In this document: positions 5,410 through 58,294 of the stretch, piece by piece
Layout: each line of letters starts with the position of its first letter
Position numbering within the stretch: position 1 is the stretch's first letter
Virus record (IMG/VR): IMGVR_UViG_3300050015_000878
Coordinates: 1-64,000 of that record
Reading direction: 5' to 3' (one strand)
From: a virus
Length of the DNA: 64,000 nucleotides
Position numbers and translations under genes: made by a program
The notes under the pieces: generated by a model
Databases searched by the model: none
The model's input: only the letters and a program-made list of their open reading frames with translations
What the model was told of the DNA's origin: nothing

Positions 5410-6627
5410 TTAGAAAGGTAGGTCTTCGTAATCACCTGAAGGTGGAAGTTCTTCATTTTCATCACCTACAAGGTCCTCGTGCTCGTCATGAACTAAAGCA
5501 GAACCCGCATTTTCGGTAAGGTCAACAGAGTCTTCCTTGTACGTACCCACTGTTGTAGGTGTTATGTTTGCAATAGTTGTACGTGGTCCTTCTTCAAGGT
5601 CAGATGCGTATTCGAAGTTCTCGTCATCATCTGCATCGAGATTCTGCTTACGTGTGTTAGCAGCGAGTTCAAGGTCTGGACGACCAGGAAATACCCAATG
5701 CTTGTTACTTGCATCACTATCTTCCCAATATGGGTTAGTACCTGCAGCAACCATTTGAAGGAATTCCAACGGTGTGATTCCCGGTGCTTTCTTTGGTAAG
5801 AAAACTTGTCTCCATGAAGTTGTGTCTTCGAGCCACTGTCTTGCAACGATTGGGTCGCTGTGAAGTGGTGACTTAGCACGAGTACTCATGGCAGTAATTT
5901 GTTTGTAACTGATTTTGTTGAATTCAGTATCTGCCGTTGTTATACTGATATCAGTACCGTTAATCGGGTCTGCGAAACTTACACCATTCTGAGTGTTGAA
6001 GTCATCGAGAATCGGGAACAATTTATCAAGAGTACCTTGGTTCTTGAAATTATGTTTGAATCTCCAGAATTTAACACCGTCTTTTTCAGCACCCTTGTCG
6101 ATACCTTTGATGATGTAGAATTTTTTAGCATCCCATTTACCTGCCTCAATAAAAATCTCACGGTTTCTGTCCCATATGACTTTCTGTGCAGAGGTCAAGT
6201 CCTCTTTCTTAACTTTCTTAAGAGAAGGGTCTTGTGTTGCAAGAATTCTTTTTGCTTTTTCACAAAGCGGACATGGAGCAGGAATCATAATTTTGTTACC
6301 ATTTCCATCGAGCACTGGATTACCATCTTTGTCAACTTTGACAATTTTTGGGTCATTGTGTGCAGGGCAATAAACTTTCGCATATACCCTCTTACCACCA
6401 GCGATGGTCATAGGTACTGCATGGAAGAACGCCTCAACGAAAAAGAATTTCGTCTTGTACGGTAGAATCCTGAAAGTTTCTTTAGGTTTGCGGGGAGTGA
6501 AATACTTTGAAAGTATATCCTCTTTTGATTTGCGTTTGTTTTTTACTTGATTTTTCTGATAAGTACTAAACGCTTCTTTGAAATTTGACAAATCGCCACT
6601 TTGGGCATTTACATTTTGATTTTCCAT
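5410..6627 (-). CDS. Single-stranded DNA-binding protein, T4 gp32-like
   Basis: The 405-residue protein has a basic N-terminal region (KNKRKSKED near 30-37), an OB-type core interrupted by a zinc site (C87, H90, C119, C122) and a long acidic tail ending in DLPF. This is the organisation of gp32: zinc ribbon within the OB fold and an acidic tail that binds helicase, recombinase and polymerase partners. It heads the replication block. Upstream is a perfect host-type promoter overlapped by a late motif. Confidence 0.88.
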   Translation of the reverse strand: MENQNVNAQSGDLSNFKEAFSTYQKNQVKNKRKSKEDILSKYFTPRKPKETFRILPYKTKFFFVEAFFHAVPMTIAGGKRVYAKVYCPAHNDPKIVKVDKDGNPVLDGNGNKIMIPAPCPLCEKAKRILATQDPSLKKVKKEDLTSAQKVIWDRNREIFIEAGKWDAKKFYIIKGIDKGAEKDGVKFWRFKHNFKNQGTLDKLFPILDDFNTQNGVSFADPINGTDISITTADTEFNKISYKQITAMSTRAKSPLHSDPIVARQWLEDTTSWRQVFLPKKAPGITPLEFLQMVAAGTNPYWEDSDASNKHWVFPGRPDLELAANTRKQNLDADDDENFEYASDLEEGPRTTIANITPTTVGTYKEDSVDLTENAGSALVHDEHEDLVGDENEELPPSGDYEDLPF

Positions 6628-6677
6628 TTTGTTAATTAAATTACATTAAGTTATTTTTACAATATATAATTGTGCTA

Positions 6678-6708
6678 CAAATATAGCCTACATTAACTAT
6701 AAATACAA
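6678..6708 (-). promoter_or_regulatory. Host-type promoter for the SSB gene, overlapped by a late motif
   Basis: On the minus strand TTG (6706-6708) is followed by exactly 20 nt and then TATATTTG (6678-6685), matching the Bacteroidota TTG-N19/20-TAnnTTTG form. A late motif GTATTTATA (6698-6706) overlaps its -33 region, so the gene could be read by both host and phage sigma factors. Confidence 0.75.
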
Positions 6709-6745
6709 GGATTTTTAAAAATAAACTAAAAATCCGAAACTTTTT

Positions 6746-8179
6746 TTAAGGTAAAATACCATCATTAACGACTGTGAATGATAACGTTTGCTTGTTCTCA
6801 TAATAGTCGCCATTTTTTAATCTTATCTGCAAATAATAATCCTGCGGAATCAACCATGATGTGTCCAAATCGAAATCATAACCACTTGAAGTCCTATTAA
6901 CTTTAGTAAAAGGTATAATATCTATCTCATATTTTGCTCCGACTGTCGTAAATAGTCTATATTCAATATCCAAAGGTAAGAAATTACTTTGATTTGGGTA
7001 TAGTTCTTTTATACTCAGCCTGATTTTTCTGATATTTCCTGCTCTGACATTCTCTTTTTCGTTGATTCCCCAGAAATAAAAGAAATAATTTCTTGGGTCA
7101 ATCTGATTGCTCTGATTAAAGGTATAATACTTGTCTGCAGAGATAAGATAAAACTCACCATTGTATTCTGTAGTTCTACTATTAATGGTTACTGACCATA
7201 CATCACGGAATATTACTGCATCAGGATATGTTAGAGAATCAATGTTTATGTTTATTTTGTAAACACCCCTTGACACATGTGTGATTGAATCACCTGTAAG
7301 GGTCAGCACAAGATTATCTTCGTAATCATAAATGTCTACCTTATTTACTGTGATGTTTTGACTGAAGTTACCGACATTTACATATAGATAAAGGTCATTA
7401 TCCTTATCCATGTAAAAATAATTTCTGTCGTCCGTAATTTCGTCCGCAATAATTGTTTCAATGAAAGGTTCGTAAAAAGTATTTGTGTGTTTAGCATGAA
7501 ATGCAACTGCCTGTCTGAATTCAGTCTCTAATGCTTCGATATTATCGGGAAATTTAATTCCTAAACCAAAAGAACTACCCGTATATGCCGATGTTCCTGT
7601 ATAACCTGTACCAAAAAGTCGTTGATTAATGTAATGTGTAACGTCAATTTCCATATTTTCATTACCTGCCTCGAATCCCTGTGTACCGATTATCTGTGTT
7701 ACACCACTTATATATGCACCCGCAACTGTCCAACCGCTTGCTGTTGTTCTTGCGGTCCAGTTAGATGCCTGTTCGGGAATTACCGGAACAGGTCCTAAAG
7801 TAAATAAATCCTGTTTATCGGAATACGTAAAAACATAGCCATTACCTTCTCGCCAATCTTCGTTAACATTAAAAAGGTCTAAAGTAAAAGCTGCAGCACG
7901 GTCAATACCCATACTATATGACTTTTTTCCAATGAATTGCGGTGCATATGCAATAGTATTAGTCATATGTAATACGTGTCCGATAATCCTTTGTGGATTT
8001 ATTGAACCCTGTACAATTCTATCACGTAAACCCTGTAAATCAACATCAAAAATAAATCTACTAACCTTTGCATCGAATGTACCATAAGATATTTCGGTAA
8101 CGGGGTTCTGAGAGTTATTCGTAAGGTTACTTTCGATTAACGTGTTATTCTTGGAAAAATATGACCTGAATACTGACAT
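6746..8179 (-). CDS. Putative virion structural protein (477 aa)
   Basis: The family is not recognised. The protein is rich in aromatic residues, Asn and Thr, and looks beta-rich throughout, as in tail, baseplate or fibre proteins; no enzymatic motif is visible. It is preceded by its own late motif (8192-8200, 12 nt before the start) and by a strong terminator separating it from the prohead-like operon, so it is an independent late transcript. Its exact place in the virion cannot be read from the sequence. Confidence 0.7.
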   Translation of the reverse strand: MSVFRSYFSKNNTLIESNLTNNSQNPVTEISYGTFDAKVSRFIFDVDLQGLRDRIVQGSINPQRIIGHVLHMTNTIAYAPQFIGKKSYSMGIDRAAAFTLDLFNVNEDWREGNGYVFTYSDKQDLFTLGPVPVIPEQASNWTARTTASGWTVAGAYISGVTQIIGTQGFEAGNENMEIDVTHYINQRLFGTGYTGTSAYTGSSFGLGIKFPDNIEALETEFRQAVAFHAKHTNTFYEPFIETIIADEITDDRNYFYMDKDNDLYLYVNVGNFSQNITVNKVDIYDYEDNLVLTLTGDSITHVSRGVYKININIDSLTYPDAVIFRDVWSVTINSRTTEYNGEFYLISADKYYTFNQSNQIDPRNYFFYFWGINEKENVRAGNIRKIRLSIKELYPNQSNFLPLDIEYRLFTTVGAKYEIDIIPFTKVNRTSSGYDFDLDTSWLIPQDYYLQIRLKNGDYYENKQTLSFTVVNDGILP

Positions 8180-55449: not shown

Positions 55450-55747
55450 TATCGAAGAACGAGACAATCTTATTCAGTTAATGCAAGAAGCGTTGAAATT
55501 CTATGCAGACCCAACCAATTATATTGGTCCAATGGGAACTATTGCACCGATTTATTCTGATGATTATGGCTCACAAGCACGTTTTGCTTTAGAAAAGGTT
55601 AAACAATTAAATGAGCAAAATCAGAAAATTCAAGACGATTACGACAAACTTATATTGGAAGCAGAAGAACTCGAATCTACAGGTGAAACAAGTCCTTTGG
55701 ACCTAATTAACATATTTATACAAACCCGTGATGATAAAAACGTTTAA
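55442..55747 (+). CDS. Hypothetical helical protein (101 aa)
   Basis: A 101-residue protein with an N-terminal helix (ERDNLIQLMQEALKFYADPT), a central SQARFALEKVKQLNEQNQKI coiled coil and an acidic end. No family recognised. It overlaps the KTSC gene by eight bases and mazG by seventeen, so it is in the same early operon. Confidence 0.65.
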   Translation: MNSIEERDNLIQLMQEALKFYADPTNYIGPMGTIAPIYSDDYGSQARFALEKVKQLNEQNQKIQDDYDKLILEAEELESTGETSPLDLINIFIQTRDDKNV

Positions 55748-56103
55748 AGAATATCAGCAAGAAGCAAATTTTCTCAAAATATCTTTGGATAGGTTTCTTG
55801 AGAAATATCCCGACTTGCCTGCAGACGTAATTCTTTTAATGAGAGTTACTTACGATGGTTTAGGACTTGGTGAAGCAGGTGAAGTACAGGGTAAAATCAA
55901 AAAGATTATTCGGGATGATGGTGGAAAAATAACACCTGAACATATTGAAGCAATTAAGGGTACGTGAACAGTTCGGTTAAATCTACAAAAATCTATTAAA
56001 ACCTATGAAAATCTATGGACGAAATAATTTTAATAAAAACTGATATTTTTAATTAATATATACTATTTATAAAAGAGTATTAAAATTACCCAATTAAATT
56101 AAA

Positions 56104-57441
56104 ATGTTGAAAGCAATTAAAATTAGACTTTATCCGAACAAAACTCAAAGTAGTTATATAAATCGTCTATGTGGTTCATATAGAAAGGTATTTAATATGT
56201 GTTTGGAAAAAAAGATAAGTGCTTATAACAATGACAAGACAAGTCTGGGATTAAAGGAATTAGGAAATTATTTTCATCAGGACTTAATTAAAAAAGAAGA
56301 ATTTTTATATCTCAATGAGCACAACACCAAAGTATTAAAACAAACAATCATAAATTTACTTGATAGTTATAAAAGATTTTTTGTAAATGGTAATGGTTTC
56401 CCCAAATATAAATCAAAACATGATAACAATCAGTCAGCGAGATTTCCGCTGGAAGCAATATCAAAATTAAATAGTTATTCTGATAACAAGATAACATTAG
56501 GCAGACCATTAAAAAATATTAGTTTTGAATGTTCTAACAGAGATAAAAATTATTTAACAAATCACAAAGATAAAATCAAGTCAGCAACCATAAGTAGAAC
56601 AAAATCCGATAAATACTTTTTATCTGTTCTTATTGATAATATAATTGAAAAACAAATACCAGAACCAACTAATGATATTTTAGGTATTGATATTGGTATA
56701 AAAGATTTTATGGTTTGTTCTGATGGTCAAGTGTTTAATAACTTGAAACTTAAACGTAATAATGAAAAAACATTAATTAAATTACAAAGACAATTAAGTA
56801 AAAAACAATTAGTTGGGACTGGTGAATATCGGTTAAATAAATATGGTAATAAGGTTGAAATAAATAAACCTTCAAACAATAGATATAAAGCAAGAGTAAG
56901 ACTTGTAAAATTTCAAGAAAAATTAAATAATATAAAAATAAATTACATACATAACATTACAACTCAATTAGTTCGTGAGAACCAAACGATAGTTATTGAG
57001 AATTTAAATGTTAAAGGTATGTTAAAAAACCATTGTTTGGCAAAATCAATTCAAGATTTAAGTATCAACGAGGCATTCAGACAGTTAAAATACAAATCTG
57101 AATGGTATGGAAGAGATTTGATTATAATAGACAGATGGTTTCCTTCGAGTAAATTATGTAATGTTTGTGGTTATAAGTATAAGAATTTATCATTAAAAGA
57201 AAGACATTGGACTTGTCCAGACTGTGGGACACAACATGATAGAGATTATAATGCGGCAACAAATATTATGAAAGAAGGAAAGAGATTGATAGGGACACGT
57301 TATCCCGAATTTACGCTTGTGGACTATCCAACTATGGATGACAGACTCAGTAATGAGGTACTAAAAAGTAGTGATAGGTTGAGACAAGAAGAAAAAAGTA
57401 CAAATAGTGAACGAAGTGAACTTCGTACTAAGTTTTTGTAG
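56104..57441 (+). CDS. tnpB: TnpB, RNA-guided nuclease of an IS605-type element
   Basis: The 445-residue protein begins MLKAIKIRLYPNKTQSSYIN (TnpB N-terminus). RuvC residues appear intact: D196 in LGIDIGIKDFM, E299 in IVIENLNVKGM, and the HDRDYNAATNI motif near 378-388. The zinc finger has C352, C355, C371 and C374. TnpB proteins use an omega-RNA made from the 3' end of the element to cut matching DNA next to a short TAM. The 55-residue C-terminal extension overlaps the probable omega-RNA. A variant CTATTTATA box lies about 35 nt upstream. Confidence 0.9.
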   Translation: MLKAIKIRLYPNKTQSSYINRLCGSYRKVFNMCLEKKISAYNNDKTSLGLKELGNYFHQDLIKKEEFLYLNEHNTKVLKQTIINLLDSYKRFFVNGNGFPKYKSKHDNNQSARFPLEAISKLNSYSDNKITLGRPLKNISFECSNRDKNYLTNHKDKIKSATISRTKSDKYFLSVLIDNIIEKQIPEPTNDILGIDIGIKDFMVCSDGQVFNNLKLKRNNEKTLIKLQRQLSKKQLVGTGEYRLNKYGNKVEINKPSNNRYKARVRLVKFQEKLNNIKINYIHNITTQLVRENQTIVIENLNVKGMLKNHCLAKSIQDLSINEAFRQLKYKSEWYGRDLIIIDRWFPSSKLCNVCGYKYKNLSLKERHWTCPDCGTQHDRDYNAATNIMKEGKRLIGTRYPEFTLVDYPTMDDRLSNEVLKSSDRLRQEEKSTNSERSELRTKFL

Positions 57442-57456
57442 ATTTTTTTGAACGGT
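57380..57456 (+). ncRNA. Probable omega-RNA 3' end of the TnpB element
   Basis: The end of tnpB and the right end hold a hairpin ACGAAG-TGAA-CTTCGT (57411-57426) and a U-rich segment before the mazG junction. In known TnpB systems the scaffold ends at the element's right edge and the guide is the adjacent flank, here mazG sequence beginning GAATTATCTGATATA. The 5' limit is a guess. Confidence 0.5.
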
Positions 57457-57641
57457 GAATTATCTGATATATTATGGTATATCTCATCAATATGTGATAC
57501 ACTTGGATTAAAAATGGAAGATGTTGCCACATATAATATCGAAAAATTAAAGTCCCGTAGAGATAGGGGAGTATTACATGGCAGTGGTGATAATCGTTAA
57601 AAAAATATTATTGTGTTTATTGATTATTTCAATAACACCAA

Positions 57642-57650
57642 GTATTTATT
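57642..57650 (+). promoter_or_regulatory. Late promoter motif GTATTTATT (rightward)
   Basis: Lies 14 nt before ATG 57665 and supports that start for the HNH gene over the longer frame from 57578. Confidence 0.6.
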
Positions 57651-57664
57651 GTAAAAATAATACT

Positions 57665-58294
57665 ATGGTTGAAAAGGTATGTTTAAATTGTGGTGGTCAA
57701 TATAAAGTAATTGACAGTCGAAAAGATAAGGCAAAATTTTGTTCAAAAGAATGTGCCAATATACAATTAAATGGTGAAAAAAATACTGTATGTACTGAAT
57801 GTGGTGAATCGTTTCATTTAAAGGAATCGTCAAAGAGAAGATATAAGAGAACACAAGGTTATTTTTGCTCGACAAAATGTGTTGCAGATTTTAGAAAGAA
57901 AGCATATATAGGTATCAATAATCCTAATTTTAGAAATGCTGAAACAAGTAATGGCTATTTGCTTGAGCAATTACCTAAATTCGGAAGAATTAAATTACAT
58001 CATAAAGTAGTGTTTGAGTATTTAAACATCAATGAAATACCACACAATTATTGTATTCACCATAGAGATTGTCAAATTAATAACAACGACAAAGAAAATT
58101 TGGCACTATTAACAGGAAGCGACCATAGATGGTTACATAAAAATTTTGGCAATGCAACTTTATGGGCATACGTAAATAACAGAATATCTCTGAAAGAATT
58201 GTGTAGTTGGTGTAAAAATCCCGAAAAGGCTATGAAATTGTTACCATTTAACATTATAACACAAAAAGAATTAATTATATATGAAAACAGTTAA
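57665..58294 (+). CDS. Zinc-finger HNH homing endonuclease
   Basis: The start at 57665 (MVEKVCLNCGGQYKVIDSRK) is chosen for the late motif and the zinc knuckle; the upstream extension overlaps mazG. The 209-residue protein has two C4-type knuckles (CLNCG/CSKEC and CTECG/CSTKC), GINNPNFRNAETSNGYLLEQ, and the HNH core KLHHKVVFEYLNINEIP with IHHRDCQINNNDKENLALLT. A free-standing mobile gene next to the TnpB insertion; its stop overlaps the dUTPase start by 14 bases. Confidence 0.82.
   Translation: MVEKVCLNCGGQYKVIDSRKDKAKFCSKECANIQLNGEKNTVCTECGESFHLKESSKRRYKRTQGYFCSTKCVADFRKKAYIGINNPNFRNAETSNGYLLEQLPKFGRIKLHHKVVFEYLNINEIPHNYCIHHRDCQINNNDKENLALLTGSDHRWLHKNFGNATLWAYVNNRISLKELCSWCKNPEKAMKLLPFNIITQKELIIYENS

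What the first reader, a model, noticed from the sequence alone, without database searches (positions are those of the whole stretch)
55731..57600. TnpB-only element splits mazG, with its likely guide matching the disrupted gene
Seen: deleting 55962-57456 restores a 124-codon mazG in frame, joining the E..E half to the E..D half of the metal site. The inserted DNA encodes one TnpB with apparently intact RuvC and zinc-finger residues, and no TnpA. Known: TnpB uses an omega-RNA whose guide is the flank beside the right end. Inference: the nuclease would cut mazG in phages lacking the element, driving homing between co-infecting phages without a transposase, as HNH and GIY-YIG genes do.
Basis: partly seen in the sequence, partly recalled or inferred. 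Interest (0 to 1): 0.85.

Follow-up and report, generated by a model that had tools for sequence, protein, structure and literature searches.

The report
Transposase-less TnpB element splitting phage mazG
A small mobile element that carries only an RNA-guided DNA-cutting enzyme has cleanly split a metabolic gene of a large phage; it looks like a transposase-less relative of IS607 insertion sequences, its guide points at the split gene, and whether it spreads by cutting rival phages remains an open, testable idea.

Summary
A 1,495-bp insert (55962-57456, ends ambiguous by 3 bp) splits mazG; 76 of 79 fetched mazG loci read through the site. It encodes one TnpB with intact RuvC residues and zinc finger and, at its right end, a covarying omega-RNA followed by mazG sequence as the expected guide.

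The ends are IS607-type: GGG target, no duplication, AACGGT right end shared with a phage element that carries a serine tnpA. This copy has no tnpA, but a 299-kb contig of the same phage encodes two IS607 TnpAs elsewhere. Mobilisation in trans plus TnpB-driven retention is likelier than spread without a transposase. tnpB is under purifying selection (dN/dS 0.08-0.20 in 7 pairs).

Homing between phages is not shown. None of the 76 intact mazG alleles has the GGG motif this TnpB probably needs, and no divergent phage was found occupied at this site. In Lak megaphages related TnpB modules are polymorphic, and 4 of 8 genomes searched gave no serine-recombinase hit, so transposase-free spread stays open.

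The parts
55731..55961 (+). 5' part of mazG (77 codons, holds the E..E half of the metal site)
55958..55960 (+). GGG at the left junction: IS607-type target and probable TAM
   Evidence: TAM by analogy with ISXfa1 (PMC10711439 passages)
55962..57456 (+). the inserted element (equivalently 55959-57453; GGT shared at both ends)
55968..56020 (+). left end: AACAGTTC followed by repeats of about AAATCTA with 10-bp period, probable TnpA binding motifs
   Evidence: (0 of 500 shuffles as periodic)
56104..57441 (+). tnpB, 445 aa, RNA-guided nuclease
57277..57456 (+). omega-RNA scaffold (overlaps the 3' end of tnpB, ends with right end GAACGGT)
57430..57456 (+). right end ..TTTTTGTAGATTTTTTTGAACGGT
57457..57476 (+). 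expected guide (first 20 nt of the mazG right flank)
   Evidence: guide start inferred from IS607 work (PMC10711439 section 25)
57457..57600 (+). 3' part of mazG (holds the E..D half and WY motif), with stop

Best explanation
It is a non-autonomous, tnpA-less derivative of a phage-borne group of IS607-type insertion sequences. A serine recombinase TnpA supplied in trans (for example by the IS607 tnpA genes elsewhere in the same phage) inserted it at a GGG in mazG by exchange over a GG dinucleotide, without target duplication. Its TnpB, loaded with the omega-RNA from its right end, is guided to mazG DNA that has the uninterrupted GGG-T-guide sequence, that is, the empty allele of its own lineage or a sister genome from which the element was excised. 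The cut is repaired from an occupied copy, so the element is kept and driven towards fixation among the many phage genomes replicating in one cell. Shown here: clean insertion, intact alleles in relatives, element ends, omega-RNA covariation, intact nuclease residues, selection on tnpB. Inferred: supply of TnpA in trans, TAM = GGG, guide, cleavage, copy-back.
For: Clean insertion and intact relatives at two sites: mazG and an HSP20 gene (Pfam HSP20 on the joined frame). Right end AACGGT shared with L099, a tnpA-tnpB element in another phage, and found after 17 of 122 omega-RNA core matches (the scan was capped). 9 of 10 unique left ends that hold the strict AACMGTTC-type motif have GGG 5-6 nt before it (56 upstream stretches scanned, most without the strict motif; L327 and L328 are one phage). 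IS607 hallmarks (GG exchange, (G)GG target, no duplication, direct repeats) from PMC6188088 passages; GGG TAM of an IS607 TnpB from PMC10711439 passages and section 25. G001, the same phage, encodes two TnpAs over the NCBIfam IS607 cutoff, one 69% identical to the TnpA of L099 over 190 residues. TnpB: Pfam, profile match to ISDra2 TnpB E 2.4e-73, AF2 model pLDDT 83 with Foldseek top hits 8iaz (ISFba1) and 8h1j (TnpB-omegaRNA-DNA complex), D196/E299/D381 invariant in 41 sequences. Omega-RNA: 95.1% of cells paired, covariation 0.358 against 0.102 shuffled, 0 of 500. dN/dS of tnpB 0.076-0.198 in 7 pairs. TnpB gene drive in plasmids: PMC11870625 passages.
Against: The TnpB scores higher with the IS200/IS605 TnpB model (335.7 bits) than with the IS607 TnpB model (170.2), neither over its cutoff. 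The TnpA of G001 closest to that of L099 has lost its last residues. The ends show an imperfect inverted repeat, which IS607 elements are said to lack. The 10-bp repeats do not exceed shuffles in 3 of 7 left ends. Right ends vary in some relatives (ACGAT, ACTGT). The two copies in this phage are only 82% alike in tnpB, so no recent jump is seen. Two of five covariation measures do not exceed shuffles (pairs changed on both sides 162 of 500; pair types 86 of 500), and the window RNA alone folds no better than shuffles (z -1.14, 27 of 200). Cleavage was not tested.
Confidence: 0.72

Rival explanations
1. TnpB-driven homing: the element spreads between different co-infecting phages by cutting their empty mazG and being copied in, with no transposase.
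For: Intact nuclease and guide; related phages with intact mazG exist, one of them (L013) under an IMG number next to that of the occupied contig (3300050015 and 3300050014). L014 differs from the guide at 1 of 20 positions. In Lak megaphages related TnpB modules are present or absent at given sites, and 4 of 8 genomes searched have no PF00239 hit.
Against: No divergent phage was found occupied at this site: among 79 mazG loci only L035, the same phage, is known to be interrupted. 0 of 76 intact alleles have GGG at the expected motif position. The ends are those expected of a TnpA-moved transposon.
Confidence: 0.17
2. Recently stranded, decaying insertion with no current activity: mazG is simply knocked out.
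For: No tnpA in the element; the only MazG match in G000 and in G001 is the C-terminal half; some relatives carry stops or remnants of tnpB.
Against: tnpB open and under purifying selection; omega-RNA, ends and RuvC residues conserved. mazG halves show no excess of amino-acid change (dN/dS 0.042 and 0.059 against 0.052 between intact alleles L013 and L014), though saturation (dS about 1) limits this.
Confidence: 0.15
3. An intron-like element (IStron) removed from mazG mRNA, so that MazG is still made.
For: Exact restoration of the frame; complementary ends (TCTACAAAAA / TTTTTGTAGA); no decay of the mazG halves.
Against: No Rfam match at E up to 5 in 55700-57650, group I intron included; only 142 nt before tnpB; clean removal in frame is expected for any IS607-type insert.
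Confidence: 0.04

Closest known systems
IS607-family insertion sequences (IS607, IS1535, ISXfa1)
   Same: GG exchange, (G)GG target, no target duplication, short direct repeats at the ends, fixed nucleotide after the right end, GGG TAM (PMC6188088 passages; PMC10711439 passages and section 25)
   Different: No tnpA in this element; TnpB closer in profile score to the IS200/IS605 type; imperfect inverted repeat at the ends; found in phage genomes
ISDra2 TnpB and ISFba1 TnpB (solved structures 8exa/8bf8, 8iaz)
   Same: Fold, RuvC D-E-D, zinc finger; right-end guide RNA
   Different: About 26-31% identity in the structure alignments; ISFba1 TAM is AGGAG (PMC11061315 passages)
TnpB gene drive of IS elements in plasmids (PMC11870625 passages)
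   Same: Multi-copy replicon, guide records the insertion site, empty copies are the targets
   Different: Shown experimentally for plasmids; here a large phage and only sequence evidence
Phage homing endonucleases (HNH, GIY-YIG; e.g. PhiPA3 gp210, PMC11620839 abstract)
   Same: Nuclease gene inserted at or near the site it would cut; occupied allele expected to be protected
   Different: RNA-guided, has transposon ends; transfer between phages not shown

Membership tests
IS607 family | serine-recombinase tnpA in the element | tested here: not met
   No PF00239 match in the window's record; only ORF over 70 aa in the insert is tnpB. tnpA is present in relative L099 with the same right end and elsewhere in the same phage. 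Hence filed as a tnpA-less derivative, not a full member.
IS607 family | (G)GG target, GG at the terminus, no target duplication | tested here: met
IS607 family | short direct repeats near the ends | tested here: met
   10-bp period best in 6 of 7 left ends; shuffles as high: win 0, L005 0, L098 9, L002 13, L004 104, L006 124, L099 127 of 500, so met for the window, not distinct in three relatives
IS607 family | no terminal inverted repeats | tested here: inconclusive
   imperfect inverted match ACMGTTC...AAATCTACAAAAA between the ends
TnpB RNA-guided nuclease | RuvC D-E-D and zinc finger, TnpB fold | tested here: met
TnpB RNA-guided nuclease | structured right-end omega-RNA with flank as guide | tested here: inconclusive
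   structure supported by covariation but not by single-sequence folding; the RNA and its guide were not observed, only inferred from position
TnpB RNA-guided nuclease | guided DNA cleavage | not testable with these tools
   needs an assay
IStron | group I intron in the element | tested here: not met
   no Rfam match at E up to 5
TldR (nuclease-dead TnpB repressor, recalled) | lost RuvC residues | tested here: not met
   triad intact
homing endonuclease (as a mode of spread) | same site occupied in divergent genomes, or cleavable empty alleles | tested here: not met
   1 of 79 mazG loci known to be interrupted, the same phage, 2 of 79 unread; 0 of 76 intact alleles with GGG

The most novel reading that the evidence does not exclude
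In large phages a group of TnpBs has become a transposase-free, RNA-guided homing system: TnpB modules, and even omega-RNA-only mini-elements served in trans by a TnpB, spread among co-infecting genomes by cutting empty alleles, while serine recombinases are only occasional helpers or absent.
Probability: 0.18. Interest if true: 0.82.

Novelty: new member of a known kind. Interest (0 to 1): 0.47.

Why it matters
It ties a phage insertion, its empty allele, its ends, its expected guide and a likely helper transposase together in one phage, so the question whether TnpB acts as a gene drive or homing nuclease in phage genomes (shown so far in plasmids) can be tested with a defined target. The nearest TnpBs found are in other phages (nine of eleven loci at 51% identity or more), while the scan of one genome for each of 84,980 cellular species gave at best 41% by E-value and 45% in the best single segment. 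The group includes transposase-less and omega-RNA-only copies.

Tried and rejected
Intron reading: Rfam scan of 55700-57650 gave nothing at E up to 5. IS605 reading (Y1 TnpA): PF01797 in 0 of 11 records. Same-site homing at group level: an all-against-all flank comparison of 51 elements (50 of the 78 loci, those with 44% identity or more, plus the window) found shared sites only between records with near-identical flanks (L310/L311 share the left flank but not the right, unexplained). First structure prediction with 6 sequences was poor (pLDDT 44); redone with 41 (pLDDT 83). One search used a wrong guide offset and a too narrow motif (35 of 79); corrected. Junction joins: L004 and L334 gave long frames through the site; L006 gave two, with the site near the end of one and the start of the other; L314 gave none; L331 gave an open frame whose first half does not look coding. 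Some omega-RNA loci have no tnpB. The Lak comparison shows modules with diffuse edges, not the clean GGG/ACGGT ends, and one further Lak-B4 site is rearranged and could not be read as a simple insertion; so it is not direct evidence about the window element. Literature: in the listings (titles and starts of abstracts) I saw no paper that describes TnpB spreading between phages; only openly licensed papers are searched. No family tree was built.

Full report
What is there. The window is bases 1-64000 of an 84,923-bp virus record. A 9.3-kb stretch around the finding matches part of a 299-kb contig (L003/G001) without mismatch and with one 13-base gap, so I take both for one phage. Between KTSC and dUTPase genes lies mazG, split by a 1,495-bp insert. 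Removing 55962-57456 gives 124 codons in frame. Because GGT stands at both junctions, four boundary choices give the same join. The only ORF over 70 aa in the insert is tnpB (56104-57441).

Empty alleles. A viral-contig scan with the joined MazG gave 79 loci (101 candidates encoded a relative and the best 80 were kept). 76 of 79 read through the site, one (L035) is the same interrupted allele, and two were not matched by my motif. L013 (93% aa) and L014 (89%) have the same neighbours as the window. A second copy of the element (L002/L008, TnpB 82-86% identical) sits in a gene whose joined frame matches Pfam HSP20 (E 5.8e-22); five relatives, L460-L464, read through that site. L099 lies in antisense in a gene whose remaining part matches Pfam Band_7. 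For L004 and L334 the join gives long frames; L006, L314 and L331 are unclear or negative.

Ends and family. Window and L002 elements begin to match at the same left point and stop at the same right point (by eye). Of 56 upstream stretches scanned, 10 unique ones hold the strict AACAGTTC motif at a left end; 9 of these 10 have GGG 5-6 nt before it, the exception being the mini-element in L206 (L327/L328 are one phage; an L334 match far from the end was set aside). By eye, L004, L005, L006, L331, L334 and L098 also have GGG and L099 has CGG. Right ends read AACGGT or ATACGGT, with variants such as ACGAT (L327) and ACTGT (L313, L340). A 10-bp periodic repeat follows the left end (0 to 13 of 500 shuffles as high in 4 of 7, 104 to 127 in 3). 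L099, in another phage, has the same right end and a serine tnpA directly before a TnpB 62% identical to the window's. Its TnpA and both TnpAs of G001 pass the NCBIfam IS607 transposase cutoff; G001 TnpA-1 is 69% identical to it over 190 residues but lacks the last ones. Published IS607 features, seen as passages of PMC6188088 and passages and section 25 of PMC10711439, fit: exchange over GG, (G)GG target, no duplication, direct repeats, a fixed nucleotide after the right end, and a GGG TAM for ISXfa1. Against a plain assignment: no tnpA inside, a TnpB that scores better as IS200/IS605 type than as IS607 type, and an imperfect inverted repeat.

TnpB and its RNA. Profile search against PDB sequences: ISDra2 TnpB E 2.4e-73, 8iaz (ISFba1) 2.7e-63. 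AlphaFold2 with 41 sequences: pLDDT 83, below 50 only from residue 398; the omega-RNA overlaps the gene from residue 392. Foldseek puts 8iaz, 8h1j and 8exa on top. D196, E299 and D381 are invariant in 41 sequences. The omega-RNA alignment of 15 elements supports helices 16-20/26-30 and 48-52/97-101 with compensatory changes (95.1% of cells paired; covariation 0.358, shuffled mean 0.102, 0 of 500; slid versions at most 0.117); the third helix, 40-44/108-112, hardly varies. Two of the five measures do not exceed the shuffles: pairs changed on both sides (6 against 5.0; 162 of 500) and further pair types (12 against 10.0; 86 of 500). The window sequence alone does not fold better than shuffles (z -1.14). 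The covariance model finds the RNA at 57277-57456 (154.5 bits; the window is in the training set) and 3 copies in G001.

Selection and spread. tnpB dN/dS is 0.076-0.198 in 7 pairs. mazG of the window shows no excess of amino-acid change; synonymous sites are near saturation, so a recent insertion and retained function cannot be told apart. Of 50 viral relatives examined (of the 78 loci, those with 44% identity or more; several are the same phage and one is the window's own), 7 have a tnpA motif within about 1 kb upstream. Serine recombinase (PF00239) is present in 3 of 11 and 8 of 29 records (two of the latter eight lie in frames of 320 aa or more and may be other recombinases). In one genome for each of 84,980 cellular species the best relative is 41% identical by E-value, 45% in the best single segment (best 80 of 193 kept); in viral contigs nine of eleven loci have 51% or more, and among named phages the best are Lak phages with 47.6%. 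The closest relatives found are thus phage-borne; no tree was built.

Would it cut other phages? The guide is the mazG flank by position. If the TAM is GGG, none of the 76 intact alleles is a target: the nearest, L014 and L013, have 1 and 2 mismatches in 20 but AAGG before the T. The occupied junction reads ACGG, so the element should spare its own copy (inference). A GGG allele must have existed when it inserted. The predicted target is therefore the empty allele of the same lineage, above all sister genomes from which the element has been excised. That is the retention and gene-drive role; drive by TnpB has been shown in plasmids (PMC11870625, passages). Retention after excision in bacteria is from Meers et al. 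2023, which I know from recall and a reference list only; the paper was not held.

Lak megaphages. Related omega-RNAs occur 2-5 times per complete genome in the 9 records searched. At three sites one genome is occupied and a near-identical one empty; a fourth, in Lak-B4, is rearranged. At the three sites the modules lie just upstream of what reads as a start codon, with diffuse edges, so the guide would be the start of the next gene (by eye). PF00239 has no match in 4 of the 8 genomes searched (A2, B1, B3, B4). This leaves room for transposase-free spread, or for loss.

Verdict. The element is best read as a tnpA-less IS607-type element with an active-looking TnpB, mobilised in trans and kept by TnpB. 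Homing between phages is possible but unproven, and the motif evidence speaks against it for the relatives now known. The parts are of known kinds; the phage-borne group and the mini-elements add interest.

Noticed in passing
57578-58294: HNH endonuclease gene starting inside the end of mazG (PHROG HNH E 6.6e-13; Pfam HNH_3 below its cutoff). L013, L014 and L015 have a different-looking ORF of about 220 aa in this place, L016, L019 and L021 no such ORF (by eye): perhaps a second, separate mobile gene at the same locus.
   Followed up: partly
L206 5041-5196; L122 6973-7136; L397 around 3257, 7420 and 8091 (G025 306256, 310419, 311091): Omega-RNA with right end but no tnpB beyond the C-terminal tail that overlaps the RNA: possible omega-RNA-only mini-elements, three of them among 15 tRNA genes of a 387-kb phage contig with 9 omega-RNA copies.
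   Followed up: partly
L441-L453 (Lak-A1, A2, B1, B4, B7, C1): TnpB-omega-RNA modules present or absent between near-identical complete Lak genomes, placed just before what reads as start codons.
   Followed up: partly
L098 2690-5312 (G001 112-120 kb): A truncated IS607 tnpA abuts a second IS607 tnpA-tnpB pair; another TnpB-like ORF lies at 6195-7328.
   Followed up: partly
L310 and L311: Two contigs with nearly the same element (99.8%) and an identical 1,500-bp left flank but different right flanks after the right end; one contig ends 15 bp later, so it may be an assembly effect.
   Followed up: no
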